Below, piece by piece: positions 6,339-64,000 of a DNA stretch of 64,000 nt. Positions within the stretch are counted from its first letter, which is position 1. The number at the start of each line of letters is the position of its first letter. Below the pieces are notes generated by a model that searched no databases, was not told where the DNA came from, and worked only from the letters and a program-made list of their open reading frames with translations. The stretch comes from Corynebacterium alimapuense (GTDB lineage: Bacteria > Actinomycetota > Actinomycetes > Mycobacteriales > Mycobacteriaceae): contig NZ_PTJO01000003.1 of NCBI RefSeq assembly GCF_003716585.1, forward strand, positions 124,001 through 188,000. The letters are read 5' to 3'. The position numbers and the translations under genes were made by a program.

Positions 6339-6416
6339 AATATGAGTGGCTCGCGCCACAGTTGAGATAGCCCTGGAATGGTGGCTTATCCTGCGCGAAC
6401 GGGTAGGGTGGACGCC

Positions 6417-7379: not shown

Positions 7380-7393
7380 CTAGCCTGGATGCC

Positions 7394-8359
7394 ATGAAGG
7401 CAATTCAGATTACTCACACTGGGGGCCCTGAGGTCCTCTCCTTGCAGGAAATTGACTCCCCCGTACCCACCGAGGATGAAGTTCTCGTTAATGTCCAAGT
7501 GGCCGGGGTCAATTTCATCGACACCTACTATCGCGAAGGCGTCTATCACGCACCGCTGCCCTTCGTGCCCGGCCTAGAAGGCACCGGCCGGGTGGCCTAT
7601 GATCCCCGTGGGGATATTGCGGTCGGTACTGTTGTCGCTTGGTGCGACGCGTTCGGTTCCTACGCACAACAGGTCTGTGTCCCCCGTGAACGGCTGGTAG
7701 CAGTCCCCGAGGGAGTCAGCCCCGAAGTAGCGGCCTCGATGCTGCTACAGGGCATTACCGCCCACTACCTCACCTATGGGGTCTATGACCTCAAAGAGGG
7801 AGACTCCTGCCTGATTACTGCTGGTGCTGGCGGGGTTGGCCTCTTGGCTACCCAGATGGCTGCAGCTAAGGGGGTTCGGGTGTTTTCAGTGGTCTCCAGC
7901 GATGAGAAAGAAAAGCTAGCCATCGAGGCTGGTGCTACTGAGGTATTCCGCTACTCCGATAACCTCGCAGAGATCGTGCGCCGCCGGAACAATGGCGCGG
8001 GCGTCGATGTGGTCTATGACGGCGTCGGAAAGGACACCTTTGCCGAATCATTAGAGGCAGTGCGCCCTCGAGGCACCGTTTGTCTCTTTGGCGCGGCTTC
8101 CGGGCCCGTCGAACCGGTTGATCCTCAGCTGCTCAACACTCATGGCTCGATCTTTTTGACTCGGCCGTCGATTGGTGCGTGGACCTCAGGTGAGGGCGAA
8201 TTCCGGATGCGGGCTCAGGCGGTAACTCAAGCGATCGTGGACGGTACGCTACGTTTCCGTGTCTCTGACGCCTACGACTTAGCAGACGCTGAACAGGCGC
8301 ACCGAGATCTCCAAGGCCGTCGGACCACTGGATCAATCGTGCTGCGCGTGCAGGACTAG
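7394..8359 (+). CDS. qor: NADPH:quinone oxidoreductase (zinc-independent MDR family)
   Basis: A 321-residue medium-chain dehydrogenase/reductase. The N-terminal GroES-like half has VAGVNFIDTYYREGVY and VPGLEGTG. The Rossmann half has ITAGAGGVGLLATQMA, the dinucleotide-binding glycine motif, followed by VVYDGVGKDTF, the quinone oxidoreductase signature. No structural or catalytic zinc cysteines are present, as in zeta-crystallin-like quinone reductases. ATG 7394 follows ctaA by 14 bases, so it may share that transcript. The physiological quinone is not defined by the sequence. Confidence 0.92.
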   Translation: MKAIQITHTGGPEVLSLQEIDSPVPTEDEVLVNVQVAGVNFIDTYYREGVYHAPLPFVPGLEGTGRVAYDPRGDIAVGTVVAWCDAFGSYAQQVCVPRERLVAVPEGVSPEVAASMLLQGITAHYLTYGVYDLKEGDSCLITAGAGGVGLLATQMAAAKGVRVFSVVSSDEKEKLAIEAGATEVFRYSDNLAEIVRRRNNGAGVDVVYDGVGKDTFAESLEAVRPRGTVCLFGAASGPVEPVDPQLLNTHGSIFLTRPSIGAWTSGEGEFRMRAQAVTQAIVDGTLRFRVSDAYDLADAEQAHRDLQGRRTTGSIVLRVQD

Positions 8360-8393
8360 AAACCGGAGGGTTGGACTACCCACCACTGATTGA

Positions 8394-9326
8394 TCAGAAG
8401 AACGTGGTAGTCCAGCCCAGCATCTCCCCGATGGTCTCCCAACCCAACACTGCGTCAATCGAGAGTGAGACAAAGACCAAAGCGAGATAGTTATTCGAGA
8501 GAATAAACAGCTTCAGCGGCTTAACGGTAGCTCCCTTGACTATTCCTCGGTGCAAGATAATTGCCATGTAGAGGAAGTAGACACCACCAATCAAGGCGCC
8601 GGCTAGGTAGATCCATGAGGCACCTGGCACCAGCAATAGCGAGGTAATAACGGTGGCCCACGTGTACCAAACGATCTGACGGGTGACCGCAACTGGCTTC
8701 CGCACGACTGGGAGCATAGGCACGCCTGCACGCTCATAATCGTCTTTGTACTTCATGGCCAGCGCCCAAGTATGCGGCGGGGTCCAGAAGAAGATGATCA
8801 TAAACAGCACGATCGCCTGCCACCATTGAGCAGGAACTCCCTCGGGGAGATTATCGGTGATGACTGCCCAGCCCACTAAGACCGGCATACATCCTGCGGC
8901 ACCGCCCCAAATAATGTTCTGCCAGGTCCGGCGTTTGAGCCACTTGGTGTAAACGAAAATATAGAACCAGTTGGTCAGCGCGATGAAAAAGGCAGCTAAC
9001 CAAGAGCCACACAGCAGACCCAGCCAGAGGATCGACACAGTCAGCAAAGTCCAAGCAAAAATGCTGGCGTGAAGATTTGAGACGGTGTGGCGAACCAGCG
9101 GCCTAGCCCTCGTACGCCCCATTTTCTGATCAATATCTGAATCAGCCACCATGTTGAAGGTGTTGGCCGCGGCCGCACCCATCCAACCACCGATGACGGT
9201 TAATAGGATCAACAAAATGTTGCTCTCGCCACGCTCTGCCTGCAGCATCACAGGAATCGTGGCCACGAGGAGCAACTCAATAACCCTCGGCTTCGTCAGC
9301 GCAATATAGGCCTTGATTGTCTCCAA
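8394..9326 (-). CDS. ctaB: Protoheme IX farnesyltransferase (heme O synthase CtaB)
   Basis: A UbiA-superfamily prenyltransferase, about 310 residues, that attaches farnesyl diphosphate to heme B to make heme O. It has nine hydrophobic segments. The first aspartate-rich motif region is [20 protein letters not shown], and the second loop contains [16 protein letters not shown]. The frame is open to 9428, but TTG at 9326 (then [18 protein letters not shown]) is chosen since GGAGGA is 8 bases upstream and CtaB proteins begin close to the KAYxxLTKPR motif. It is convergent with qor and divergent from tkt. Confidence 0.93.
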
Positions 9327-9722
9327 GGAAGATTCCTCCAGCAGCAGGGTGGTATTAACGGCACAGACGCGATGAAAAGGTGCCTGAAAAATAAGTCGAG
9401 TCTGAATTTCAGGATAGTTGCCCACCATCCCACGGCGCCGAGTGGGACACAGGGTTAAGCCCTGTCAGCCTACCTGCCCTACCCACCCCTACCGCAATCA
9501 GCCGTCCCGTGATGGTGGTTTAACTAACCCCGTGCCCGTCTTTAACCAATTTCCACGGCCCCCTAGATTATGGGTACACCCTTGAACTGGGTATCTAGGG
9601 CAGTCACCCATCGGTTGAAGCATCCGCACTAAGGTGGGCCATGATAAATACTGTCGGTGCCCTTGGCCGCCGATGTTTCCCGAAATAGACTTATTCCCGA
9701 CCCTTAAAGTAAGGATTCTCCT
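9327..9722. promoter_or_regulatory. Divergent ctaB / tkt promoter region with an inverted repeat
   Basis: About 400 bases without a gene, holding the promoters for ctaB (leftward) and the tkt operon (rightward). An 8-bp perfect inverted repeat CCCTAGAT (9561-9568) / ATCTAGGG (9593-9600) encloses a smaller ACCC/GGGT dyad. It may be a regulator site or a leader hairpin. The tkt start is preceded by AAGGA. No specific regulator can be named from sequence alone. Confidence 0.4.
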
Positions 9723-11822
9723 GTGACTTTGTCGCCCGAACTGCAGGCACTGACCGAGCGTCGCTACCCCACCGACTGGAGCGATGTTGATACCCGCGCA
9801 GTGGATACTGTCCGTGTCCTAGCTGCCGATGCAGTCCAAAAGTGCGGTTCCGGGCATCCGGGCACCGCTATGTCGCTGGCACCGTTGGCCTACACCCTCT
9901 ATCAGCGGATCATCAACCATGATCCCACTGACACCAACTGGGTTGGCCGCGACCGCTTCGTGCTCTCCTGTGGGCACAGCTCCCTGACCCAGTACATCCA
10001 GCTCTACTTGGGTGGATTCGGCCTCGAGCTCGAAGACCTGCAGGCGCTGCGCACCTGGGGCGCGTTGACCCCAGGGCACCCGGAGGTCGGGCACACCAAT
10101 GGTGTGGAAATCACCACCGGTCCACTGGGCCAGGGTCTGGCCTCAGCCGTAGGTATGGCTATGGCTGCCCGCCGCGAGCGTGGCCTCTTCGATCCGGAGA
10201 CCCCGGCTGGCGAGTCCCCCTTCGATCACTTCGTCTACGTCATCGCTTCTGACGGTGATCTACAAGAGGGCGTGACTGCAGAAGCGTCTTCCATCGCTGG
10301 CACCCAGCAGTTGGGCAACCTCATCGTGTTCTGGGATGACAACCGCATCTCCATCGAAGATGACACCCAGATTGCGTTCACCGAAGACGTTTCGGCCCGC
10401 TACCGCGCCTACGGCTGGCAGACCATCGAGATCGATGGTGGTGAAGACGTCGCAGCTATCGAAGCTGCTGTTGTCGCCGCCAAGGCCGATACCTCCCGCC
10501 CGACCTTCATCCGCGTACGCACCGTTATCGCCTACCCGGCCCCCAACGCCCAGAACACCGGCGCTTCTCACGGTTCTGCCCTCGGCGCAGAAGAGGTCGC
10601 AGCCACCAAGGAGGTCTTAGGCTTCGATCCTGAGCAGAGCTTCCAGGTTGATGATGAGGTGCTGGCACATACTCGTAGCTTGTGTGAGCGTGGCGCAGCC
10701 AAGCACGCCACCTGGCAGGAATCCTTCGACGCCTGGGCGGCCAATAACCCCGAGCGCAAGCAGTTGCTCGATCGCCTCGTGGCGCGCGAGCTGCCCGCTG
10801 GTTTCGCCGACGATCTGCCTTCCTGGGATGCCGATGAGAAGGGGGTCGCTACCCGTAAGGCTTCAGAGGCGGCTCTCCAGGCACTCGGCGCCACTATGCC
10901 GGAACTATGGGGCGGATCAGCCGACTTGGCTGGCTCCAACAACACCGTTATCAAGGGTTCACCGTCTTTCGGCCCCAATGAGATTTCTACTGATACCTGG
11001 TCTGCTGAGCCCTACGGCCGTAACCTTCACTTCGGTATCCGTGAGCATGCCATGGGTTCAATCCTCAACGGCATTGCGCTCCACGGCCCGACCCGCGCTT
11101 ATGGCGGCACCTTCCTGATCTTCTCTGACTACATGCGCCCGGCCGTCCGTCTCGGCGCATTGATGAAGTCTGATGTCTACTACGTGTGGACTCACGATTC
11201 CATCGGGCTGGGCGAAGATGGCCCGACCCACCAGCCGGTAGAGACCCTCGCTGCGCTGCGCACCATTCCGGGCTTGTCCATCCTGCGCCCGGCCGATGCC
11301 AACGAGACTGTTCAGGCATGGGCTGCAGCGCTCGAATACCGCGAGTCTCCCAAGGGATTGGCCCTGACTCGCCAGAATATTCCGGTGCTCGAAGGAACCA
11401 AGGAAAAGGCTGCTGAGGGTGTTCGCCGTGGCGCCTATGTCCTCGTCGAATCATCCAAGGCCACCCCAGAGGTCATCCTCATGGGCACCGGCTCTGAGGT
11501 TCAGCTCGCCGTTGCCGCTGCCAAGACCCTAGAAAACGAGGGCATTGCCACTCGCGTGGTCTCCGTTCCTTGTATGGAGTGGTTCGCTGAGCAGGACGCA
11601 GACTACATCGAGTCGGTTCTACCCACCGCCGTGGGTGCTCGCGTCTCCGTCGAGGCCGGCATCGCTATGCCGTGGCACCGCTGGACTGGCACTCAAGGCC
11701 GCAACGTCTCCTTGGAGCACTTCGGTGCCTCCGCTCCTTATCAGAAGCTGTTCGAGGAATTCGGCATCACCGCCGAAGCCGTTGTCGCCGCCGCCCACGA
11801 CAGCATCGCCGCCGCCCGCTAA
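9723..11822 (+). CDS. tkt: Transketolase
   Basis: A 699-residue thiamine-diphosphate enzyme moving two-carbon units between sugar phosphates in the non-oxidative pentose-phosphate pathway. Seen in order: the SGHPGTAMS substrate motif (~residue 42), the thiamine-binding block SDGDLQEGVTAEA (~170) with IFWDDNRISIED nearby, the pyrimidine domain with FGIREHAMG (~440), and the Sugar-P segment near SIGLGEDGPTHQPVE (~490). The start is GTG at 9723 after AAGGA. It is the first gene of tkt-tal-zwf-opcA-pgl, all on the plus strand with short gaps, so the oxidative and non-oxidative branches are expressed together. Confidence 0.97.
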   Translation: MTLSPELQALTERRYPTDWSDVDTRAVDTVRVLAADAVQKCGSGHPGTAMSLAPLAYTLYQRIINHDPTDTNWVGRDRFVLSCGHSSLTQYIQLYLGGFGLELEDLQALRTWGALTPGHPEVGHTNGVEITTGPLGQGLASAVGMAMAARRERGLFDPETPAGESPFDHFVYVIASDGDLQEGVTAEASSIAGTQQLGNLIVFWDDNRISIEDDTQIAFTEDVSARYRAYGWQTIEIDGGEDVAAIEAAVVAAKADTSRPTFIRVRTVIAYPAPNAQNTGASHGSALGAEEVAATKEVLGFDPEQSFQVDDEVLAHTRSLCERGAAKHATWQESFDAWAANNPERKQLLDRLVARELPAGFADDLPSWDADEKGVATRKASEAALQALGATMPELWGGSADLAGSNNTVIKGSPSFGPNEISTDTWSAEPYGRNLHFGIREHAMGSILNGIALHGPTRAYGGTFLIFSDYMRPAVRLGALMKSDVYYVWTHDSIGLGEDGPTHQPVETLAALRTIPGLSILRPADANETVQAWAAALEYRESPKGLALTRQNIPVLEGTKEKAAEGVRRGAYVLVESSKATPEVILMGTGSEVQLAVAAAKTLENEGIATRVVSVPCMEWFAEQDADYIESVLPTAVGARVSVEAGIAMPWHRWTGTQGRNVSLEHFGASAPYQKLFEEFGITAEAVVAAAHDSIAAAR

Positions 11823-51687: not shown

Positions 51688-52271
51688 CGATTGTTCTCCC
51701 GGTGCTCAGGGTGGGACAAAACAACCGCGTCACGGCCATCAATATCCCGGAGTAGGACGCTGACATCCTCCCAGCGTGAGGTGGGCAGATTCTTGCCCAC
51801 ATAATCGGCCCGGATGGGCAGCTGACGATGACCCCGGTCAACCAGGACCGCCAATTGGATGTTCTCCGGACGGCCAATATCGCGCAGGGCATCCAAGGCT
51901 GCGCGAATGGTGCGACCGGAAAAGAGCACGTCATCTACTAAGACGACCGTGCGACCATCAATTCCCGCGGTGGGAATCGTGGTGGGTTTCAACGCGCGAT
52001 GAGGCTTCGAGCCCAAATCATCACGGTAGAGGGTGATATCAAGGGCGCCGACGGGCACAGCCACGCCGGAAAATTCCTCGATCTTTGCGGCCAGACGTTC
52101 AGCCAAGGGCACTCCCCCCGAAGGGATGCCCAAGAGCAAAACCGGCAGCGCGTCGGCGGAATCCAACGCGGTCTTCTCGATGATCTGGTGCGCGATGCGT
52201 GCGACTGTGCGTGCAACGTCGTCGGAGCCAAGTAGCTCGACAGACGTGGCAGGGACATTGCTTTCACTCAT
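51684..52271 (-). CDS. pyrR: Pyrimidine operon regulator PyrR / uracil phosphoribosyltransferase
   Basis: A 195-residue PRTase-fold RNA-binding protein. It senses UMP/UTP and binds a loop in the pyr mRNA leader, and often has weak uracil phosphoribosyltransferase activity. The PRPP motif is [19 protein letters not shown] (~residue 107), and [15 protein letters not shown] lies near the start of the catalytic core. The ATG at 52271 follows AAGGAGGT. It is the first gene of the pyrimidine operon, and the leader just upstream contains a matching hairpin. Confidence 0.95.
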
Positions 52272-52275
52272 CGTG

Positions 52276-52305
52276 ACCTCCTTCCCCGCCTCTCTGTGCG
52301 GTACT
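52276..52305 (-). promoter_or_regulatory. Probable PyrR-binding leader hairpin overlapping the pyrR translation-start region
   Basis: On the minus strand CCGC-ACAGAGAG-GCGG (52301 down to 52286) forms a short stem with a purine loop. It resembles the PyrR binding loop, which contains an AGAGAGG-like core. The ribosome site AGGAGGT lies a few bases further on, only ~10 bases before the pyrR ATG. This fits translational repression by PyrR, as described for mycobacterial pyr operons, rather than transcription attenuation. Function is inferred. Confidence 0.6.
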
Positions 52306-52418
52306 TAAAGGATGCCTGTCTATGGCGAATGATGTCTATGCTTGTAAGACTGCTGCTGATCTTAGCACCACGCACCCTGAACCGGGTGCGTATCTCAACG
52401 ACGAAAGGGATCGAACCC

Positions 52419-53795
52419 GTGAGTCTTAGCGCCAAGCACGTCGTCCCCGCCACTAGGTCACAGGTCTGGGATTGGCATAGCCGTCAAGGTGCCCTGGCCC
52501 GCCTGACCCCGCCGTTTGCCCCGATCACCCCGGTGTCCCAGGCTGAAAGCCTGGCGAATGGAACCACGATCCTGGCTATGCCCGCCGGATTAAAGTGGAT
52601 CGCACGCCATGACCTTTCTAATTATCGCCGTGGCTACCTCTTTACCGACGTGTGTACGTCTGCGCCCATCAAGATGCTGGCTAATTGGCGACACGTCCAT
52701 GAATTTGCCGACCATGCAGACGGGACGTTGGTCACCGACACCGTCAATACCCGAGTCCCCGGGGCCGCACTGAAGTCGATGTTTGCCTACCGCCAACACC
52801 AGCTGATCAATGACCTCAGCTTCTTAGAGCGCATCAGCCACCTGCAGCCAGAGACTCCCCTGACGGTGGCCATCACCGGTTCCCGTGGGTTGGTGGGCCG
52901 TGCACTTAGCGCGCAGCTGACTACCTCCGGGCATAAGGTCATCCAACTGGTTCGTGGCAACCCCAAGCCCGGCCAGCGCGAATGGGATCTCGTCAGCCCA
53001 GATCCAGAACTACTAGCCGGCGTTGATGTCCTTATTCATCTAGCCGGCGAACCGATCTATGGTCGCTTTAATAACAGCCATAAACAGGCCATCCGTGACT
53101 CACGCATCGAGCCCACCCGCCGCTTGGCGGAATTGGTGTCCAATAGCCCCGATGTGTCCACCATGATCTCTGCCTCAGCGGTGGGCTACTACGGTGCTGA
53201 TCGTGGCGAAGAAGAATTGGACGAGAGCGCTGATCGCGGCGAAGGCTTCCTCGCTGATGTGGTTTCCGATTGGGAAGAAGCCACCACCCCGGCTGCCAAG
53301 GCTGGAAAACGAGTCGTACGTATCCGCACCGGCGCAGTCATCTCCGGCGGCGGCGGACTACTCCCCCTACTCAAGGCACTGTTTTCCACCGGACTAGGCG
53401 GCAGCTTCGGCGATGGCAACTTCTGGTTTTCCTGGATCGCCCTCGATGATCTGACCGACATCATCGTCCGCAGCGCGCTTGATCCCGAACTATCCGGATC
53501 CATCAACGCCACCGCACCCAACCCCGTGCTCAACCGCGAGTTGACCTCTGCGCTCAGCAGCCAGCTCCACCGCCCAGCAATCATCCCCATCCCTACCCTG
53601 GGACCAGCCATCCTGCTGGGCAAAGAAGGCGCCAAGGAACTCGCGCTGGCCGATCAGCGCGTCATTCCGCAAAAGCTTATCGACGCCGCCCACACCTTCC
53701 GCTACCCCACCCTCGCTGAGGCTTTAGCCCATGAACTAGGTGGCGAAGAGCTCTGTGAGCCAGGGGTCGTGGCAGAAGGTGATGAGGTGGAGTGA
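52419..53795 (+). CDS. SRPBCC domain - TIGR01777 epimerase fusion protein
   Basis: About 458 residues. Residues ~1-140 look like a SRPBCC/START-like lipid-binding domain (RSQVWDWHSRQGALARLTPP at the N-terminus). Then a short-chain epimerase domain begins with VAITGSRGLVGRALSAQL (NAD(P)-binding glycines), continues with IHLAGEPI and SAVGYYG (active-site tyrosine region), and ends with FRYPTLAEAL. This two-domain form is common in corynebacteria; its substrate is unknown. GTG 52419 is chosen since AAAGGGA lies 9 bases before it, and the frame otherwise runs back over the pyrR leader. It is divergent from pyrR. Confidence 0.88.
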   Translation: MSLSAKHVVPATRSQVWDWHSRQGALARLTPPFAPITPVSQAESLANGTTILAMPAGLKWIARHDLSNYRRGYLFTDVCTSAPIKMLANWRHVHEFADHADGTLVTDTVNTRVPGAALKSMFAYRQHQLINDLSFLERISHLQPETPLTVAITGSRGLVGRALSAQLTTSGHKVIQLVRGNPKPGQREWDLVSPDPELLAGVDVLIHLAGEPIYGRFNNSHKQAIRDSRIEPTRRLAELVSNSPDVSTMISASAVGYYGADRGEEELDESADRGEGFLADVVSDWEEATTPAAKAGKRVVRIRTGAVISGGGGLLPLLKALFSTGLGGSFGDGNFWFSWIALDDLTDIIVRSALDPELSGSINATAPNPVLNRELTSALSSQLHRPAIIPIPTLGPAILLGKEGAKELALADQRVIPQKLIDAAHTFRYPTLAEALAHELGGEELCEPGVVAEGDEVE

Positions 53796-54617
53796 GGTTG
53801 AGGTGTGGTGGAGGTGGTTGGGGGTCTGCTGCGTTGATGTGGTTAAGCGGCTGGTTTAGTTGCCGCTGGTGATGGCTATTTACCGGGCAGTCAGTCCAGG
53901 CTATTGGCCCACAGAATAGCTGGTTTAGCTCCCTGTGATCACCTGTTGATTAGAATTGTGTGCAACTTCGACAGCGTCATATTTGCAGCACCTGCAACCA
54001 GACCCTCGCCATCCTAAGAGGCAAAGAACTACGAGGGGTCTCTTCGTGGTCCATATCCGAAATCGGAATGCTGGCCTAGGTATTTTTAGCGGGCAACAAT
54101 GAAAAGCCAACTGAAAACCCACGAACTGCAGCGTCATGAGTTAAGCAGTGCTGTCCATTGCACTAGAAGCCAGCAGACTTACCTTCAACGCGCTAAAGTG
54201 CTGGCAGTACGGCACAGCCTTCCACTCGCATTTCGAATCGCCTGACGATTTCGACCTCAAGTTTTAACGCATCTTGCACCCAGAGCCAGGGCGATGAGGT
54301 GAATTATTCGTACTGGTCCGCCGACTGCGACTCATTCGCTTTTGGATGCCCACATGCGGCAGATGAATGCCTTCGTGATTCCCCGACTACTCATGCGGGT
54401 TATGTAATCGTTTAAGAGACGCACCTAGGCGCTGATTAGAGATACACGAATAGTCTCGTCGACTCCGCCGCCTACGCTAGGTCGTAGAGACACTGATCGT
54501 AATCAATAATGCGATGATATTTATTGGACATTTCCTCACATCATCATCAAAAGAGCTATCGCCTAGGCATCAAGAAACCGAATAAAATAGCCTTCCCAAA
54601 GTACGATCGCCATAAGA
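53796..54617. other. Gene-free region at the left edge of the accessory island
   Basis: About 820 bases with no supported gene. A G-rich stretch follows the epimerase stop (53,790-53,860). The rest is a mosaic of short frames broken by stops on both strands. A plus-strand fragment around 54,190-54,265 (reading AFHSHFESPDDFDLKF before a stop) looks like degraded coding sequence of unknown origin. I see no terminal repeats, tRNA or transposase. Confidence 0.4.
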
Positions 54618-55349
54618 CTAGGCAGGAAAAGCCGTGGTGATCTTCCGAAGGATCTGCGGAACGTCGAACCTCGTCACGATACCTTGGAGCTTTCCGGTTG
54701 AGGTGCCGTCAACAGTTACCAATACAGTCGAGCGAAGGCTCTCACTCGATAGAAAATCACAGACCTTATTAGCGGACTCCCCCGGCTTGACGAACTTGGG
54801 CTGATCGTAGTCCTCTCCAAACTGGAGCACTGCCGAGACCGTCACAGCTTCCTCAATGAGGTGCCCCTGTTCACGGTGGACTGCATCACTGAGCCATCGG
54901 GCGAGTGCATTAGTTGTGAACAGAGCCTGGTATTTTCCTTCGTCGTAAATCGGGATTTGCGAAAATCCCTCTTTAATGACTAATTCTGCAGCATCAGCAA
55001 GTGAATCCGTCGGGGCTAATACAGCAGGATCCTTGATCATATAATCGTGAATCTTTGGCGGATTCTGAACCTTCTCCGCAATTTCTTCCATCGCGTTGAC
55101 CGCATCTAAACGAGGAGTGGCCAATTTTACGCCGCTAAGGACATGAGAGTGCTGCATAACATTACGCAGATCTACGAGTATTTTAAGTGATTCCTGGTGA
55201 TTACGGATTATTGGATTATTATTTTCGAGTGCATGATTACGCGCTTGCCCCAACCCCGAGAATTTTCTTCCATACTTCTTTTCAAGGGATGCTTTCATCG
55301 CTTCAGCAGCATTGAGGAAGCGGTCAGCGTAGTCAGAATCAGTAGCCAT
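54618..55349 (-). CDS. HEPN-like domain - CBS pair fusion protein
   Basis: A 243-residue protein. The N-terminal ~95 residues are helical and contain IIRNHQESLKILVDLRNVMQH, with the R-x4-H pattern (R62, H67) of HEPN domains, many of which are RNases. Two CBS repeats follow (residues ~98-155, with MIKDPAVLAPTDSLADAA, and ~165-243, ending GIVTRFDVPQIL); these usually bind adenine nucleotides. Similar HEPN-CBS proteins occur widely in bacteria, generally without known function. It stands alone on the minus strand, ahead of the defence locus and facing away from it. RNase activity gated by nucleotides is inference only. Confidence 0.75.
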   Translation of the reverse strand: MATDSDYADRFLNAAEAMKASLEKKYGRKFSGLGQARNHALENNNPIIRNHQESLKILVDLRNVMQHSHVLSGVKLATPRLDAVNAMEEIAEKVQNPPKIHDYMIKDPAVLAPTDSLADAAELVIKEGFSQIPIYDEGKYQALFTTNALARWLSDAVHREQGHLIEEAVTVSAVLQFGEDYDQPKFVKPGESANKVCDFLSSESLRSTVLVTVDGTSTGKLQGIVTRFDVPQILRKITTAFPA

Positions 55350-55852
55350 TTTCTCAGCATAGTATTTTCCCTGCTAAAGCAACGCTATCTGTCACCATTC
55401 TAGGTGGCTACACCCCCGTGCATCTGGTGACTGACACCCCGAGAAGTCTCGCCTCCAACCAAGAGCACACACCCAACAAAGCACGACAGTATCTAGACAT
55501 CGAAGAGAGTTCTGTTCCATAAAGAGTACTGCCCTCCGCTGCCAAGCTAAAAGAGCTCGCCTTAACTTTAGTCACCTCAACCGTGACACCCACCTATCTA
55601 GAGGCCAGAAGACAGACACCGTTTCTTGCCTCTTTCTATCAACTAGACCACTGTCTCCATCCACATCACTAGCAAATAGACCGAGGTTCGATTCTTGACT
55701 GACCTCTCCTGTCCCAGGATTCTATAGCGGCTGAGATAGACCCCCTGCGCATATTGCAATCCCCCTCATTAGTATGGAATGTCTGAGGGTTTACCACCCT
55801 AGGTAGGGCCCTACTTTCAGGGATGCCGCAGCGGAGAGGATGGAAGCTAGAC
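55350..55852. other. Intergenic region upstream of the defence locus
   Basis: About 500 bases between the divergent HEPN-CBS gene and pglW. It should contain promoters for both. Short frames on each strand have no motif or ribosome site. I see no tRNA, att-like duplication or repeat. Confidence 0.4.
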
Positions 55853-57808
55853 ATGCGCAAGGATTCCCCAAGGTGGGTGGAGATTTCTCGCTCCGAGTAC
55901 GATCATGAACGCGCTGGCTTGGATGCTCTGGGAGGGCTGATTCCCGATGCTGCCCCCTACCGGTTATGGACGAACTTCGAGTTCCAAGATTCACAAGGAA
56001 CCTGGAATGAGGTTGACGCGCTGGTTCTCGGGCGTGGTCGGCTCCACTAATTGGAGCTAAAATGCTGGAGCGGGATCTTAAGTGGCGACGAGCACAATTG
56101 GAGGCTCACTGGAAAAAATAGGAGCATCTCAAACCGTAAATCGCCCACTCTGGCTACTAGACGCAAGGCACAGCGTCTGGCTAGCAAGCTGCAAACCGCA
56201 TTGTGGGAAATCAAAGCTACAGCTGATTTTCCTATTCCTCCGGAATATCTCACGCCGCCGATAATCAAGGAAGGTGTACTGCTACACAGCGAATGCTTTC
56301 GCTCTCAGCTCAATGCCGATGGACAGATGAATGTCTTCACTCTGGACAGTCTGGCAAAGGAAGCGCATCTGCCTGGAATTACTGAACGAATCCTTGAGGC
56401 ACCTGCTTATAACGAGATTGATGAAGAATTCGGCCGGGTCATGTTGACCTTGGCCATTGAGAAAATCTCTGGAGTAATCAACCGTCGGCAACGTGCTGGC
56501 TCATGGGAACTGACGCACAAGATCGACGACGCGAACGATCTAGTGGTCTGGGCAGCTAAGCACATTGACCATGATGAGAAAGCACTGATCAAGCTTCGCC
56601 CCATCTTTGCTGACGCGACAGAAGCAGACGCTCGCCGTGCGGAAAAAGCTGTAACCCGCGAATACAAGCTCCTGTCCTCACTTGCGCATCCCGGGATTGA
56701 CTCGCCGAAGAGCCTCGAGAGGGTCGACAAATATGATCTACAAGCCTTGGTCTATCCAGAGCATTCAGGTTTTGAGTATCTTGACCTACTTCTTCCTAGA
56801 TTAAAGCTAACTGCTGCCCAACAGGTGGAAATCATCCTGCAAATCGCAGATGCGGTTGCCTACGCTCATCGCAATAATGTCATCCACCGACAGTTAACCC
56901 CTGAAGCAATCCTGCTCAATGTCGCTGCTTTACAGGGAACCGAACCTCGAGTTGAGGTCAAAGTTACGGGTTGGGCTCAGGCAGTTCAGGTGAATGCTAC
57001 GAAGGCATCTGAAACCCTGCTAGGAACAGTTCTCCAGCCGATGAGCACGACTGCTTCCTTCGACGTGGGCGTGAGTTTTCTGCCTCCAGAAGGCTATTTG
57101 GCAGACAGTGACGGTCAGCTTGCGGATCTATTTTCTCTCGGCGCACTAGCCTTTTTCATTCTCTCCGGTGGGCTGCAACCGGCGAATACCCGTGCTGATC
57201 TGATCACTCTGCTCAAAGAGCACGGTGGGCTAGATCTGGGTACCACTGGTGTTCAGGTGGAACCGCTATTACGGGAGTTGATCACCAAGGTCACTTCCGC
57301 TAGCCCGATGTGTCGCCGCAAGGCGGTGCTACCTGCTAATCCTCCAAGGGTCACTCCCACACCGGTGGAGCTGTTTGCCGGGAAACTTCGAGAACTTGCT
57401 CAAGATCGACGTCCTTTAATACAAGACGATCCGCTTCACACTCCCATCGGCGGGCTCATTGATGACCGGCTCGAGGTGATCAAGGTTCTCGGTTCCGGCT
57501 CAACCGCCCGTGGTATCTCAGTCTCTAATATCAACGATGAACCTGCTAAAACACATGTACTCAAGATGGGTATTACCCCGGATAAAGCCTCCACTCTCGC
57601 GGCTGAAGCAGAAACCCTACGCAGGCTAAATAGAGAACTCAGTGGGCACGAACATCGCAATCTATTTGTCACTTTGGTCGAGGAACTGCCAGCGCTATCG
57701 CCCATGTACGAGAAAAGAACTTCACCACTGGTGTACTCGCTCTCTACGACCCTACTAGTTGGGAAGGTCCCTCAATCCTTGAAGTTGCAGGTGCCAGAGT
57801 TGCCGTAA
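55853..57808 (+). pseudogene. pglW: BREX type 2 kinase PglW, interrupted and truncated
   Basis: The N-terminus shows a NERD nuclease-like domain: WVEISRSEYDHERAGLDALG, NEVDALVLGRGRLH, then an in-frame TAA (56048-56050), then LELKCWSG in the same frame. One base change (e.g. TTA to TAA) would restore it. After the stop the frame runs to 57808: a first kinase-like domain (~56,525-57,420) with HRQ (56885-56893) instead of HRD and TGW (56966-56974) instead of DFG, then the start of a second kinase-like domain with its glycine loop GSGSTARG. This second domain ends near 57,690, before any catalytic loop, and the last ~35 codons are out-of-frame pglZ sequence. PglW of Streptomyces is much longer. 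ATG 55853 is the likely original start; an ATG at 55823 is possible. The gene is therefore inactive as written, unless stop read-through or re-initiation occurs. Confidence 0.8.
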
Positions 57809-57825
57809 TCGATGCTCCTACTCCA

Positions 57826-60381
57826 TTGGTAATTCGTCAGGCCATCAGTTTCCCTATGCAAGGTGTCGATTTCACGGTTTTGGTCACTCCTTTGCTCGAC
57901 GCTGACCTCCCCGATGACATTCTTGCCCACCTCACGCCCTTCCATCGGGTTAACATCCCTATTCCTGCTGATGCTCTCCGGGAACTATTCTCTGCTAGTA
58001 CTCAACGACGTGGCATCATTCGCAACCGTCGCGATATCGCTGGCGTCGTAGAGTATCTCGCCCGTTGCGACGGCGATCCTGTCGACCTCACCCCTGCTTC
58101 AACAGGTGTGCTTACTGCCGCGCACCTGCACCATCAGCTGCTCACTGTCGGGGTTGGCTTGCCAACAACGCCTAATATGTCCTCGGTCATCGCATGGTCG
58201 CTTGATCCTGCATCAGTATCTAGATGGGCTGATTTCGTTAACTCCGTCTCGCCCGAGGTGAGAGAAAGCGCAGTGGAGTGGCTACGGACTCGGTTAGGTG
58301 AAGGGTCAGGCGCACTGGTGCGCTATCTCAACGCTCACGGTCCACGGGATCTGGCGGCCTGGGGTCTGGTAGCCGAAGTTGTCAGACCAGGACCCGGTAT
58401 CGATAACGCTGCTCGTGCAGGTGCCGAAGCTGCTTTCCGAATCACCACCGGCACTGGCCCTCCCTCCGACCTAGAGCTAGAAGCCTGGGCGAATGCCTCT
58501 ATTTCAGTATTTTCCTCTAATCAACGCTCAACTGCTCAGTTCGATGAATGGCGTAAATTGGCCGCCGGCCGAGCTGAAGAGTTCATTACCGCTGAGTCCA
58601 AACTTGGTGCCCGGAATTTGCTCTATCGCTCCCAGGTATGCAGAGGGGCACTCAGTGCTCGGATTGCCAAGCTCACGGAAGCACTTTCTGCTTGGTATGC
58701 AGACCCCCAAGAAATTGGCATCGCAGACGCCTTGGCTTCAGTTCAGTCCCACGCCTCTAGCAGTACAAAGCACCCGGATATTGCTGTCGCTATGGCACTA
58801 ATACGAATGATCAATTGGTTGCGTACTCCTGCTGTATCAACTCCGAGCACGCTATCGGATTGGTTGAAGTACTACCGCCGTGACATCAGCTGGCTAGATG
58901 TTTGTATCAACCGAGCTTGGGGCAATCAATCGACTTCAGAGCTGGCACGACTATCCCACCGAGTGCTCGACGAGGTTCGTCCCCGACGCAACACCCTCGA
59001 CCGTGAGTTTGCGGCTGTAGCGGCGAACACTGCCGCCGAGAGGCACACCGCCGGTAGCGTTCTCCTGGCAGAAGATGTTCTCGACCGTGTCGTAGCTCCC
59101 CTTCTCGAGGATCCCTCCAACCCCCGACCAGTACTCATGATCGTGCTTGACGGCATGAGCATCCCTGCCGCAAACATCCTAGTGGATAACATCCTCTCCA
59201 ATCCCAACGAAGACTGGCAAGAAGCGATCCCTGACGAAGAAGAACTCTCCACTGCTCTCAGCGTCTTACCAAGCGTTACTACTTTCGCCCGCACTAGTTT
59301 GATTTCCGGAAAGCTCAACACCGGCGGACAAGCCTCCGAGCGCGCCGGACTAGAAGCATGGGCTTCCGCTCATCTAAAAAACCAGTCAACTGGATGGAGC
59401 CTGCAACACAAAGCAGACTTAGATGCAGGAATAGTGGACAGTATCCGTGTTCAGGTCGAAGACACGGAACGCAATAAGCTGGTCGTGGCAGTTCTTAACA
59501 CCATCGACGATGCCTTAGACAAATCTGACCCCATCGAGCGAGTTTGGGATGTTCAAGACATCACCCACCTGCACCCTCTGTTGCAATCTGCTGCAGCCGT
59601 AGGCCGAACGGTGCTCTTTGTTTCGGATCATGGGCATGTGCTCGAACGACACGATACTTCCCCCACTCCTGGAGGCACAGGCACTGCACGATGGCGTGAA
59701 CCACTTTCCCCGCCGCAAGAGGGTGAGACATTGATCTCCGGCTCCCGAGTGCTCAGTGCTTCCGGTGAGGCCATCTTGGCCGTCGATGAAGGTATCCGTT
59801 ATACCTCACGCAAGGCTGGATATCACGGTGGACTCAGTCTTTCTGAAGTTGCCACGCCAGTGACTATCTTGACCAACTCGGTAAGCACATTAGCGAATCG
59901 TCTTTCCAATTTTCCGCTCACTACAGGCAGTTCAGACACTCGCTATCCCGAATGGTGGAATCGCCGCCAGGACAACGAGCGGCCAGTCACTCCCACGCCC
60001 GTCAAGAAAAGAAAGAAACCAGTCGATGAATCCCCAGCGCTCTTTGATACACCGGATATTGATACCCTCCGGAGTGAACTACTTCCAGACCTAGAGCGCA
60101 ACACTCTTTTCCGGGCACAGACCACATCCTTCCCAGTGGATGGTCGCTCTCGAAAGCAGATTGCAGAACTAATTCGCAAGATCGCCACCAACAGCGGACG
60201 CCTTCCAATTTCTACTCTCCGAGAGACCTGGCAGCTCGGTCCCATCCAGTTGCGTGGCGTCATTTCTACGCTGCTGCGTATCCTGAATATAGACGGGGTT
60301 CAGGTACTCGAACAGCAGGATTCGGACCTTGTACTCAACCGAAACCTCCTGGCAGAACAGTTCGATGTGAAGGATGTCTGA
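57826..60381 (+). CDS. pglZ: BREX type 2 alkaline-phosphatase-like protein PglZ, 5' truncated
   Basis: An 851-residue frame of the PglZ family, whose members belong to the alkaline phosphatase superfamily and act in phage exclusion. Metal-site motifs are intact: VLMIVLDGMS (Asp ~442), FVSDHGHV (D601, H602, H604) and YHGGLSLSEVATPV (H667). The first usable start is TTG 57826, but conserved PglZ sequence continues upstream in this frame (TTGVLALYDPTSWEGP from ~57,724), with no ATG, GTG or TTG back to the stop at 57631. So the natural N-terminus (at least 35 residues) has lost its start at a deletion junction with pglW. brxD overlaps or abuts the 3' end. Function is uncertain without the N-terminus. 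Confidence 0.85.
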   Translation: MVIRQAISFPMQGVDFTVLVTPLLDADLPDDILAHLTPFHRVNIPIPADALRELFSASTQRRGIIRNRRDIAGVVEYLARCDGDPVDLTPASTGVLTAAHLHHQLLTVGVGLPTTPNMSSVIAWSLDPASVSRWADFVNSVSPEVRESAVEWLRTRLGEGSGALVRYLNAHGPRDLAAWGLVAEVVRPGPGIDNAARAGAEAAFRITTGTGPPSDLELEAWANASISVFSSNQRSTAQFDEWRKLAAGRAEEFITAESKLGARNLLYRSQVCRGALSARIAKLTEALSAWYADPQEIGIADALASVQSHASSSTKHPDIAVAMALIRMINWLRTPAVSTPSTLSDWLKYYRRDISWLDVCINRAWGNQSTSELARLSHRVLDEVRPRRNTLDREFAAVAANTAAERHTAGSVLLAEDVLDRVVAPLLEDPSNPRPVLMIVLDGMSIPAANILVDNILSNPNEDWQEAIPDEEELSTALSVLPSVTTFARTSLISGKLNTGGQASERAGLEAWASAHLKNQSTGWSLQHKADLDAGIVDSIRVQVEDTERNKLVVAVLNTIDDALDKSDPIERVWDVQDITHLHPLLQSAAAVGRTVLFVSDHGHVLERHDTSPTPGGTGTARWREPLSPPQEGETLISGSRVLSASGEAILAVDEGIRYTSRKAGYHGGLSLSEVATPVTILTNSVSTLANRLSNFPLTTGSSDTRYPEWWNRRQDNERPVTPTPVKKRKKPVDESPALFDTPDIDTLRSELLPDLERNTLFRAQTTSFPVDGRSRKQIAELIRKIATNSGRLPISTLRETWQLGPIQLRGVISTLLRILNIDGVQVLEQQDSDLVLNRNLLAEQFDVKDV

Positions 60382-60385
60382 CGCT

Positions 60386-61672
60386 ATGACCGAGGTTTCT
60401 CCCGCCCGCCGCACTGCGATCATCGACGCTTTGCGTCGGGGCACCGTGCCGGCTTCAGGGCTCGACCAGTTAGCAGTTGGCCTCGATCAACTCAAACCAG
60501 TCATTGTAGAAGAATTAGATAAAGTCGCTGGTGGAGCTGCAGTTTTCAAAGCAATCCGGGGCGAATACGGATCTGGCAAGACCTTTGCTTCTCGTTGGGT
60601 TCAGCAACACGCTTTGGCACGAAACTTCGCGGTAGCTGAAGTTCAAATCTCAGAGCTAGAAACCCCGCTACACAAACTAGAGACTGTCTACCGACGAGCC
60701 ACGGAAAGCATACACACCACAGCATTTGGAACTGGCGGGTTCCGCATGATTCTTGATACCTGGCTCTACCAGGTAGAGAAAGATTCGCATGGTTCCGATG
60801 AGGTCGCTGACTCAATAGTCGAGCAACGGCTGGCTGCCGTTGCTGCGACCGCACCTGTGTTTCCGCTGGCGTTACGCGCTTACCGTAACTCCATCCTCGA
60901 AGAAGACGTCACGACCGCTGATGGGCTAGCGGCGTGGCTTGGCGGACAACCGTCCGTCGCTGCATCCATCAAACGCCGGGCTGGAGTCAAAAGCGAGCTC
61001 GACCACTACACCGCTATGGGGTTTCTCCGAGGGCTGGTGGAAATTTTGCGTGGTTCGGGGCATGCTGGTTTAGTCTTGGTTCTCGATGAAGTAGAAACCT
61101 TGCAGAGGATGCGTGCAGATTCTCGAGAAAAAGCACTCAACGCACTTCGTCAGTGGATCGACGAGATCGATGCTGGCCACTATCCTGGCCTCTACCTTCT
61201 CATTACCGGCACCACGGCTTTCTTCGAAGGAAACCAAGGCGTGCGTCGCCTTCCTCCGTTAGATTCCCGATTGAGAGTCGATTTCTCCGGTGACCCCCGA
61301 TGGGACAACCCTCGTTTACCGCAGATCCGTCTACAAGGCTTCACCAAAGATCGACTCATCGAGGTAGGTCTCAAAGTTCGTGATCTCTACGCTGGTGGTT
61401 CTTCAACTGGAGATCGAATCCTGACGGCCGCCGATGATGCCTTCGTAGCCGATCTTGCAGACACTGTCGCAGGTGTGCTTGGTGGTCAGGTGGGAGTTGC
61501 TCCACGGCAATTCTTGCGGACCCTCATCGATGTCCTCGATCGGATAGACCTTCACCCTTCCTTCGATCCGCGAACCGACTACAGCGTCTCAATCCCTGAA
61601 TCAACCATGTCTGAGAATGAACGCGCCGCTGCACACAACGTAGTGACCAATCCGGATGACATCGAGTTGTGA
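60386..61672 (+). CDS. brxD: BREX system ATP-binding protein BrxD
   Basis: About 428 residues, a P-loop ATPase of the BrxD (DUF2791) family. Walker A is IRGEYGSGKTF (~residues 58-67) and Walker B is VLVLDEVETL with D234-E235. Then comes YLLITGTTAFFEG, a sensor-like strand, and the C-terminal region (VAPRQFLRTLIDVLDRID). ATG 60386 is chosen because AAGGA is 10 bases upstream; ATG 60374 in the same frame sits directly on that AAGGA. It overlaps or abuts pglZ, and its stop overlaps the brxHI start as GTGA. The frame is intact. In known BREX-2 loci this gene follows pglZ. Confidence 0.85.
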   Translation: MTEVSPARRTAIIDALRRGTVPASGLDQLAVGLDQLKPVIVEELDKVAGGAAVFKAIRGEYGSGKTFASRWVQQHALARNFAVAEVQISELETPLHKLETVYRRATESIHTTAFGTGGFRMILDTWLYQVEKDSHGSDEVADSIVEQRLAAVAATAPVFPLALRAYRNSILEEDVTTADGLAAWLGGQPSVAASIKRRAGVKSELDHYTAMGFLRGLVEILRGSGHAGLVLVLDEVETLQRMRADSREKALNALRQWIDEIDAGHYPGLYLLITGTTAFFEGNQGVRRLPPLDSRLRVDFSGDPRWDNPRLPQIRLQGFTKDRLIEVGLKVRDLYAGGSSTGDRILTAADDAFVADLADTVAGVLGGQVGVAPRQFLRTLIDVLDRIDLHPSFDPRTDYSVSIPESTMSENERAAAHNVVTNPDDIEL

Positions 61673-63795
61673 CTAACCTCGGCATCAACGCCCTTCACCC
61701 GGTAATTATTCACCACATTGTCTCCACTTTGAGGTGGCCGGGTCTGCGTCCTCTCCAGGAACAAGCTGTCGCTCCGTTGATTTCCGGAGAAGACGCAATC
61801 CTGTTAGCACCGACGGCCGGTGGGAAAACAGAGGCCGCAGCTTTCCCGATCCTCTCTCGGATGACTACTGAAGAATGGTCTGGTGTTTCTGTACTATATC
61901 TCTGCCCTATAAAAGCACTACTAAACAACCTAGAACCCCGTTTGGCCGAATATGCTGCCTGGCTCGGCCGCCGCGTAGCGGTCTGGCACGGCGACATCGG
62001 GCAATCTGCCCGCCGACGGATTATCGCTGACCCTCCCGATATTCTGCTGACCACACCAGAATCTTTGGAAGCTATTATGGTCAGCCGAGGAGTCGACGCT
62101 GCGAGCTTTCTAGGTAGCATAAACACAGTCATCATTGATGAGGTACACGCCTTCGCCGGCGATGATCGCGGATGGCATCTATCAGCGGTGTTATCCCGTG
62201 TGGAATCGTTTACCGGCCATCAGTTGCAACGAATCGGAATGTCGGCGACCGTGGGAAATCCACAAGCGCTACTGTCTTGGCTCCAAGGCGGCAGGGCGGA
62301 TCGTCCTGGTCGCGTATTATCCCCCGAAGTGACTCCAGGATCGCTGGTTCAGGCCGAGATCACTGTTGATTATGTTGGCAGCATTTCTTCTGCCTCCCTG
62401 TTGATCTCAAAACTTCATCAAGGGGAGAAACGACTTGCCTTTGTGGATTCTCGCCGTATGGCGGAAGAACTCGGCACTGCTCTCCATGAGCGCGGAGTTC
62501 GGGTATATTTGTCTCATTCCTCGTTATCTGCTGACGAGCGTCGGCGTGCAGAGGACGCTTTCGCCAACGACCGCGACTGTATTATCGTGGCCACCTCCAC
62601 TCTAGAATTGGGCATCGATGTCGGCGATCTAGATCGAGTGATACAGATCGGCACCCCTGGCACTGTTTCATCGTTTTTACAACGTCTTGGCCGCACCGGA
62701 CGACGCTCCGGTTCCTCTCGAAACTGCTTGTTGATCACTATCGATGACGAAGATGGACTCATTCATACCCTTGGACTCCTGCAAGCTTGGTCCCGCGGCT
62801 TTGTTGAAGAGGTCACTGCCCCACCGTTACCCCGGCATCTAGCTGCCCAACAGTTTCTAGCTGCAGCGCTCAGCGACGGCACCATCAATCTGGGGACTTG
62901 GCATCGGCTGTGGGAATCTACTCCCTTGATGTCTAGAGACGTCCTCGGAATCGATCCGGAGGAAATACTCAACCATCTAATATCTTCCGGAATGTTAGAG
63001 ACTGACGGTGGACAAGCTTTCATCGGCATCGAGGCCGAAAGAGCTTTTGGACATAGACATTTCATGGAACTGCTTTCTGCATTCACCACCCCACCGGTGT
63101 TCACTGTCACGGATGGGCGCTACGACATAGGTACCGTCGAGCTTCGAACCATGCTCTCGGCTTCAAATTCCGGTTCACCCGGCCCCGCTGCACCTATGAC
63201 AATGTCGCTAGCTGGCAGGTACTGGAAAGTTGTCTCCGTTGACTGGCGCAGGCGCCGCTTAGTGGTGGAAAGAGCAGACACTGGTGCGATCACACGATGG
63301 GGATCTGTCTCGCGAGGCTTCGGCGCCGAGGTCACATCTGGGATGCTCAAAGTACTACTCGGAGAAGATCCCGCAGGTGTAGTCATGACTCGGCGAGCTG
63401 CCGATTTACTCGGCCATCTGAGAGATGAATACGCCGAGCTGACTCCTACTCATGGTTTCCACTATCTTCCTGCTACTAGCGATACTGCCTATGGTCATCT
63501 ATGGACTTGGGCAGGAACTGTGGCCAACCAGCAATTGGTGGCAGATCTTAGCTCCCAACTGGGAGAAGAACTCGCTCCACAGCGTCAACGAATTAGACAT
63601 GACCGCATCTTTGTCCACTATGGTGTCCCTGAGTCAGAGCTACGCGAACGAATCCGTTTAGCCAATAATCTTCCCTCAGGACAACGACCACTACCGGAAG
63701 TTAACGAAGATGCCCTCGACGAATTGAAATTCTCGCAAGCACTGCCGGCGCAGTGGGCAATGCAAGTATTAGAAACACGGCTAGTCACGCCCTAA
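61669..63795 (+). CDS. brxHI: BREX system Lhr-like helicase BrxHI
   Basis: A 708-residue superfamily 2 helicase. Motif I is LLAPTAGGKTEAA (K53), motif II is DEVH (residues 157-160), motif III is GMSATVGNP, and motif VI is QRLGRTGRRSG (~338-348). The C-terminal ~300 residues lack a recognised domain apart from the Lhr-like region. The start is GTG 61669, overlapping the brxD stop. The frame is complete and ends at 63795, the last gene of the visible locus. In BREX-2 systems it is the usual partner of brxD. Whether it still has a role without PglX and PglY is unknown. Confidence 0.88.
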   Translation: MTNLGINALHPVIIHHIVSTLRWPGLRPLQEQAVAPLISGEDAILLAPTAGGKTEAAAFPILSRMTTEEWSGVSVLYLCPIKALLNNLEPRLAEYAAWLGRRVAVWHGDIGQSARRRIIADPPDILLTTPESLEAIMVSRGVDAASFLGSINTVIIDEVHAFAGDDRGWHLSAVLSRVESFTGHQLQRIGMSATVGNPQALLSWLQGGRADRPGRVLSPEVTPGSLVQAEITVDYVGSISSASLLISKLHQGEKRLAFVDSRRMAEELGTALHERGVRVYLSHSSLSADERRRAEDAFANDRDCIIVATSTLELGIDVGDLDRVIQIGTPGTVSSFLQRLGRTGRRSGSSRNCLLITIDDEDGLIHTLGLLQAWSRGFVEEVTAPPLPRHLAAQQFLAAALSDGTINLGTWHRLWESTPLMSRDVLGIDPEEILNHLISSGMLETDGGQAFIGIEAERAFGHRHFMELLSAFTTPPVFTVTDGRYDIGTVELRTMLSASNSGSPGPAAPMTMSLAGRYWKVVSVDWRRRRLVVERADTGAITRWGSVSRGFGAEVTSGMLKVLLGEDPAGVVMTRRAADLLGHLRDEYAELTPTHGFHYLPATSDTAYGHLWTWAGTVANQQLVADLSSQLGEELAPQRQRIRHDRIFVHYGVPESELRERIRLANNLPSGQRPLPEVNEDALDELKFSQALPAQWAMQVLETRLVTP

Positions 63796-64000
63796 AACAT
63801 GGAATCCATGCTCATGCTGCCTAAACTGTGGGACTAGAACCACTGGAGCCTGCTGAAATAGATCTCAGAGCATCCGCTGCCATCTGATGTGAGCTCTTCT
63901 TAGAGTTGTGCCATCGACAGATCTCCCCTACAAGGAGAATCTCCAAAATGACCAGAAATTACCAATACTCAGAGCACTGAAATAGCAAGATCTCAGCGTT
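63796..64000. other. Region after brxHI to the window end
   Basis: About 200 bases with no supported gene. CAAGGAG precedes an ATG at 63948, but that frame stops after 10 codons (63980), so it is either a leader-like frame or chance. No clear terminator hairpin with a T-run was found. Confidence 0.4.

What the first reader, a model, noticed from the sequence alone, without database searches (positions are those of the whole stretch)
55853..63795. Type 2 BREX (Pgl) locus reduced to pglW fragment - pglZ - brxD - brxHI
The sequence shows kinase, phosphatase, BrxD and BrxHI genes in the order known for type 2 BREX, but the adenine methylase PglX and the ATPase PglY, which normally lie between pglW and pglZ, are absent. 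pglW stops in its second kinase domain and joins pglZ out of frame. The simplest explanation is one deletion that removed the 3' end of pglW, pglX, pglY and the 5' end of pglZ. Without PglX there can be no BREX methylation from this locus, so it is either dead or repurposed.
Basis: partly seen in the sequence, partly recalled or inferred. Interest (0 to 1): 0.75.

Follow-up and report, generated by a model that had tools for sequence, protein, structure and literature searches.

The report
Phage-defence operon broken by one deletion
This Corynebacterium chromosome carries the wreck of a known phage-defence operon (type 2 BREX) whose middle, including the DNA-marking enzyme, was lost in what looks like one deletion of about 10 kb, so it most likely no longer works; this kind of gene decay is ordinary.

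Summary
Window 55,853-63,795 holds a pglW 5' fragment, pglZ without its first 17 codons, and full-length open brxD and brxHI. Corynebacterium gallinarum Sa1YVA5 (G056) has pglW-pglX-pglY-pglZ-brxD-brxHI. Against it the window aligns as two collinear blocks, 55,834-57,696 and 57,688-63,767, which overlap by 9 bases (GCCAGCGCT) and skip 9,766 bases of G056: 3' pglW, pglX, pglY, 5' pglZ. One microhomology deletion would leave exactly that. pglX, pglY and the pglW C-terminal half were not found elsewhere in this genome, while each query found its gene in other Corynebacterium. The remnant sits in about 18 kb of DNA whose flanking genes are neighbours in 5 of 8 relatives read. Among 62 BrxD loci none showed pglZ-brxD-brxHI in intact frames without pglY; 10 were cut by contig ends. 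Most likely a dead BREX-2 locus. Repurposing of BrxD-BrxHI is not excluded but has no positive support. Low interest.

The parts
55853..57696 (+). pglW 5' fragment (codons 1 to about 616-619 of 1,353 in G056); in-frame TAA at 56,048-56,050
56048..56050 (+). premature stop codon (codon 66) of pglW, inside the region of the NERD domain
57688..57696 (+). deletion joint: 9-base overlap GCCAGCGCT of the pglW and pglZ blocks; 9,766 bases of the G056 operon are missing here
57697..57808 (+). out-of-frame tail of the pglW reading frame, running through pglZ DNA to TAA 57,806-57,808
57688..60381 (+). pglZ lacking its first 17 codons; first ATG/GTG/TTG in frame is TTG 57,826; otherwise open, LDGMS and SDHGH motifs present
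60374..61672 (+). brxD, full length (432 aa, 90% identical to C. gallinarum), start overlaps the pglZ end
61669..63795 (+). brxHI helicase, full length (708 aa, 82% identical to C. gallinarum)
53796..64000 (.). left part of about 18 kb of extra DNA (continues about 7.8 kb beyond the window, to about L015:7,837) between the epimerase gene (ends 53,795) and a ybjN-like gene

Best explanation
An inactivated type 2 BREX (Pgl) operon. It was acquired with a stretch of extra DNA and then lost about 9.8 kb (3' pglW, pglX, pglY, the first 17 codons of pglZ) in one deletion between short matching stretches in pglW and pglZ; pglW separately acquired a stop at codon 66. Without the methylase PglX, the ATPase PglY and the catalytic part of the second PglW kinase domain it can neither mark host DNA nor exclude phages by the BREX route. 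pglZ, brxD and brxHI are still readable because inactivation is fairly recent, not because a new function is shown. Shown: gene content, collinearity, joint, second lesion, absence elsewhere in the assembly. Inferred: the microhomology route, a single event, recency, loss of function.
For: Two collinear blocks against the operon of C. gallinarum with a 9-base overlap at the joint and 9,766 bases missing. The missing stretch encodes BREX-2 PglX (NCBIfam 1,528 bits, cut-off 400) and PglY (740 bits over the whole length, but below its cut-off of 1,700). Queries with G056 PglX, PglY and the C-terminal half of PglW: 0 matches in the own genome at E up to 1. Controls: over 242 genomes of the genus the PglX query matches strongly (56-100% identity, E 2.3e-170 or lower) in 6 and the PglY query (45-100%, E 9.2e-140 or lower) in 7, own genome none; the C-terminal PglW query matches 5 of 5 other genomes and not the own one. 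Second lesion: stop at pglW codon 66. In S. coelicolor PglW kinase activity and PglY ATPase activity are reported essential for resistance, and among the wild type and the pglW, pglX and pglY deletion strains tested pglZ could be deleted at normal frequency only in the pglX deletion (also when a second pglZ copy was supplied) (PMC4365076: passages and section 7); a deletion that takes pglX together with the start of pglZ is therefore a tolerable route (inference). Decay elsewhere in the genus: in the 20 kb read from G045 only a brxD 3' fragment and an interrupted brxHI are left, and pglW of G021 is split over two frames.
Against: pglZ, brxD and brxHI remain open over about 6 kb and keep the motifs I recall as catalytic (LDGMS and SDHGH in PglZ; Walker and DEAD-box motifs visible). 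pN/pS against G056 is low (0.27, 0.08, 0.15), but it is also low in the broken pglW fragment (0.19), so it mainly reflects the time before the break. Relative-rate counts lean mildly towards more change in the window in most but not all comparisons (pglZ 52 v 24, 45 v 28, 40 v 32, 28 v 28 against four outgroups; brxD 14 v 5 at most). A C-terminally shortened pglZ was tolerated with pglX in S. coelicolor, so not every damaged pglZ demands loss of pglX. No expression, methylome or phage data. The closest intact operon is from another species (72-90% protein identity), so the exact size and joint in the true ancestor are unknown, and the two ends in G056 are not identical over the 9 bases.
Confidence: 0.92

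Rival explanations
1. Repurposed remnant: BrxD-BrxHI (with or without the shortened PglZ) still act as a small DNA-sensing or helicase defence module, resembling Shango SngB-SngC.
For: brxD and brxHI are intact and match SngB (6.5e-32) and SngC (2.9e-109) as well as BrxD/BrxHI. PMC12839542 (passages) describes BrxD and BrxHI as a tightly linked dyad in BREX-2 loci.
Against: The BrxD/BrxHI models score far higher than the Sng models. A SngA query found nothing in the own genome, but it rang in no control genome, so this is uninformative. Of 62 loci with a BrxD relative, 51 have pglY, 10 are cut by a contig end before pglY could be seen, and the remaining one (L060) has a pglZ truncated at its 5' end and split over two frames; the query finds close relatives only, so more distant arrangements were not sampled. 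The stop at pglW codon 66 lies upstream in the same gene string and would be expected to reduce expression of the rest (inference).
Confidence: 0.06
2. Assembly or sequencing artefact: the operon is intact and was collapsed or misjoined here.
For: Draft assembly of 12 contigs; no reads available.
Against: The joint lies inside an 815-kb contig; 9 shared bases are too short to misjoin a normal assembly (general knowledge); pglX and pglY are found nowhere in an assembly of 99.93 completeness; the separate stop codon in pglW fits decay.
Confidence: 0.03
3. Stepwise loss: several smaller deletions rather than one (the locus is dead all the same).
For: Cannot be formally excluded from one genome.
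Against: Both outer ends meet at a single joint with no filler DNA; one event is the simplest account.
Confidence: 0.08

Closest known systems
Type 2 BREX (Pgl) operon, e.g. Corynebacterium gallinarum Sa1YVA5 (G056; L012, L013, L020, L103) and Streptomyces coelicolor Pgl
   Same: pglW, pglZ, brxD and brxHI in the same order and strand as in G056; 72-90% protein identity to G056
   Different: 3' pglW, pglX, pglY and 5' pglZ deleted; stop at pglW codon 66. In S. [quoted passage not shown]
Disabled BREX of a Salmonella laboratory strain (StySA, PMC9009780, passages seen)
   Same: a BREX locus with neither restriction nor methylation because of mutations in its genes
   Different: a BREX variant compared there with type I; mutated in pglZ and brxC with pglX unchanged, whereas here pglX is gone
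Shango (SngABC)
   Same: SngB and SngC models match BrxD and BrxHI
   Different: BREX models score far higher; SngA not found, with an uninformative control

Membership tests
Type 2 BREX, intact system | PglX adenine methylase present | tested here: not met
   absent at the locus and in the own genome; the query matches strongly in 6 of 242 genomes searched
Type 2 BREX, intact system | PglY (BrxC-like) ATPase present | tested here: not met
   absent in the own genome; strong matches in 7 of 242
Type 2 BREX, intact system | PglW with complete kinase domain | tested here: not met
   stop at codon 66, and the frame ends before the HRD motif of the second kinase domain; C-terminal half not in the own genome, found in 5 of 5 control genomes
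Type 2 BREX, intact system | PglZ of the BREX-2 family | tested here: met
   BREX_PglZ_2 2e-177; but first 17 codons missing and no ATG/GTG/TTG in frame before 57,826
Type 2 BREX, intact system | BrxD and BrxHI | tested here: met
   full length and open
Type 2 BREX, decayed locus | collinear with an intact BREX-2 operon apart from the lesions | tested here: met
Type 2 BREX, intact system | host DNA methylation at a BREX motif and phage exclusion | not testable with these tools
   no methylome or phage data
Shango | SngA partner | tested here: inconclusive
   no match in own genome, but none in the 14 control genomes either

The most novel reading that the evidence does not exclude
BrxD-BrxHI, left behind by the deletion with a shortened PglZ, still work without PglX and PglY as a methylation-independent anti-phage module, which would show that the helicase dyad of BREX-2 is a separable effector.
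Probability: 0.04. Interest if true: 0.65.

Novelty: new member of a known kind. Interest (0 to 1): 0.15.

Why it matters
It is a clean example of how a BREX-2 operon can die: apparently one microhomology deletion that takes the methylase together with the start of its reported antitoxin gene pglZ. It also warns that finding BrxD, BrxHI and PglZ in a genome does not show a working BREX system. Otherwise ordinary gene decay.

Tried and rejected
Reduced BREX variant as a conserved type: not supported. Of 62 loci with a BrxD relative (six of them, L020-L025, are loci of genomes of the genus already seen), 51 have pglY, 10 are cut by a contig end before pglY could be seen (L021, L025, L026, L029, L037, L042, L051, L054, L058, L074), and the remaining one (L060) is itself broken. 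With flanks of at most 10 kb, pglX and pglW were often out of view there and were not counted.

Dating the event by substitution counts: synonymous sites against G056 are saturated or nearly so, and relative rates show no strong signal, so no date.

Same joint in mobile DNA: a 31-base pattern over the joint gave 0 matches in viral contigs. Plasmids: 12 of 72,556 records match parts of the region, the best place 23% of it; in the 10 rows listed the annotated matches are brxD and helicase genes; the tally of all 12 by organism has no Corynebacterium. Both tools say that records very near the window's genome may be left out.

An ABC-F gene right of the island was used to find the empty site; it hit mostly paralogues, and I read instead the DNA next to pyrR in 8 of the 12 other same-genus relatives listed.

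SngA query in the own genome: no match, no control rang, so nothing follows.

Literature: in the rows listed (3 of 3; 20 of 25; 9 of 9; 20 of 192) no title names this locus; only the held open-access library was searched. Seen: passages and section 7 of PMC4365076, outline with abstract and passages of PMC12839542, passages of PMC9009780; the others in listings only.

Full report
What is there. The window carries, on the + strand, pglW (from ATG 55,853), pglZ, brxD (60,374-61,672) and brxHI (61,669-63,795). Profile matches are unambiguous: PglW 1.5e-118, PglZ 1.2e-184, BrxD 1e-181, BrxHI 2.8e-271 in PADLOC, BREX_PglZ_2 and BREX_BrxD in NCBIfam. pglX and pglY are not between pglW and pglZ.

The intact counterpart. 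Its operon is pglW (1,353 aa) - pglX (1,197) - pglY (1,285) - pglZ (915) - brxD - brxHI. NCBIfam names the proteins missing from the window BREX-2 PglX (1,528 bits, cut-off 400) and PglY (740 bits, over the whole length but below the cut-off of 1,700); G056 PglW scores 838 bits, also below its cut-off of 990. Identities of window to G056: pglW fragment 75%, PglZ 72%, BrxD 90%, BrxHI 82%.

The deletion. blastn of window 52,001-64,000 against the G056 region gives two blocks only, 55,834-57,696 to pglW and 57,688-63,767 to pglZ-brxD-brxHI. They overlap by nine bases of the window, GCCAGCGCT, which resemble both ends in G056 without being identical to either. In G056 coordinates 9,766 bases are missing. 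pglW is cut at codon 616-619, inside its second kinase domain (545-802) and before the HRD motif at 671; pglZ starts at its codon 18, out of the pglW frame. One deletion between short repeats explains all of it; the route is inferred.

A second lesion. pglW has an in-frame TAA at 56,048-56,050, codon 66, within the region of the NERD domain (18-116 in G056). The pglW frame therefore does not run unbroken from 55,853 to the joint. G056 is open there. So pglW was hit twice.

Elsewhere in the genome. Queries with G056 PglX, PglY and the C-terminal half of PglW give no match in the own genome even at E up to 1. As controls, over 242 genomes PglX matches strongly in 6 (G021, G056, G083, G164, G168, G199; the other 16 of 22 matching genomes are weak, 23-38% identical over part of the protein) and PglY in 7 (those and G203; an eighth, G093, is weak). 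The C-terminal PglW query matches 5 of 5 other genomes given to it and again not the own one.

Relatives. Nine of 242 genomes, the own one included, match BrxD. In four (G056, G083, G164, G199) all six genes lie in long open frames in the same order; G083 has about 1.5 kb extra between brxD and brxHI. In G021 pglW is split over two overlapping frames, and brxHI was read only in part. G168 and G203 have small contigs and were not judged. In the 20 kb read from G045 there is a 3' brxD fragment and a brxHI interrupted by about 1.6 kb with an open frame of 429 aa. The own genome is the ninth. In the named collection 62 loci with a BrxD relative were fetched, six of them (L020-L025) from genomes just named; 51 have pglY, 10 are cut by a contig end before pglY could be seen, and L060 (Accumulibacter MAG) lacks pglY in the 4 kb upstream and has a pglZ that starts at profile position 112 and continues in a second frame.

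Setting. In 5 of 8 same-genus relatives read next to pyrR, the matches to the epimerase gene and the ybjN-like gene that flank this region end 23-109 bases apart; in this genome about 18 kb lies between them: a CBS-domain gene, the BREX remnant, a broken Mutator-family transposase and a large helicase-nuclease gene. None of the 8 showed CBS, pglZ, brxD, brxHI or the large helicase in the 19.5-20 kb read. The other three lack a match to the epimerase, the ybjN-like gene or both, so they do not show the empty site. G+C of the remnant is 54% against 59% for window 1-54,000. This fits acquired DNA; the epimerase and ybjN names are my reading of the sequences, not a call.

Dead or repurposed. For dead: two of six genes missing and two cut, two separate lesions, and the published need for PglW kinase and PglY ATPase activity in S. 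coelicolor Pgl (PMC4365076). In that work, among wild type and pglW, pglX and pglY deletion strains, pglZ could be deleted at normal frequency only without pglX (or with a second pglZ copy), although a C-terminally shortened pglZ was tolerated; a deletion that takes pglX and the pglZ start together is thus one that a cell can tolerate (inference). Against: pglZ, brxD and brxHI remain open. But low pN/pS (0.27, 0.08, 0.15) is also seen in the broken pglW fragment (0.19), and relative-rate counts show at most a mild excess of change in the window, so open frames fit a recent break. Repurposing remains possible without positive evidence.

Verdict. Observation confirmed, interpretation supported, ordinary decay of a known system.

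Noticed in passing
L015:1520-6961 (right of the window): 1,813-aa protein with SF1-type helicase parts (AAA_11/AAA_12) and a REase_MTES_1575 nuclease domain; PADLOC best match PDC-S37 (8.8e-53), weaker to MkoA/MkoC and Hhe. Possibly another defence gene of the island.
   Followed up: partly
L014:16190-17325: Mutator-family transposase in two pieces just right of brxHI.
   Followed up: no
window 54618-55349: CBS-domain protein left of pglW, not found next to pyrR in 8 of 8 relatives read; may be part of the island.
   Followed up: partly
L091 (G045): Second Corynebacterium BREX-2 remnant: brxD 3' fragment and brxHI interrupted by about 1.6 kb holding a 429-aa open frame.
   Followed up: partly
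L016 (G021), 5868-9931: pglW split over two overlapping frames in a locus where all six BREX-2 genes are detected, brxHI read only in part: frameshift, sequencing error or phase variation.
   Followed up: no
L042:2863-8293: Pseudomonadota contig: a fragment of brxD (residues 9-135) stands about 3.7 kb before a full brxD, with a metallo-beta-lactamase-fold gene and an unnamed ORF between, and a caspase-kinase fusion gene just before the fragment; looks like cargo inserted with duplication of the brxD start.
   Followed up: partly
L030, L031, L033, L060, L070: 1.8-3.5 kb of extra DNA between the pglZ and brxD matches: a recurrent insertion place in BREX-2; in L060 it holds a NERD-like protein.
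   Followed up: no
L015:8937-10598: ABC-F-like gene with 60-62% relatives in three other families of the order but at best about 36% in the 12 same-genus relatives searched.
   Followed up: no
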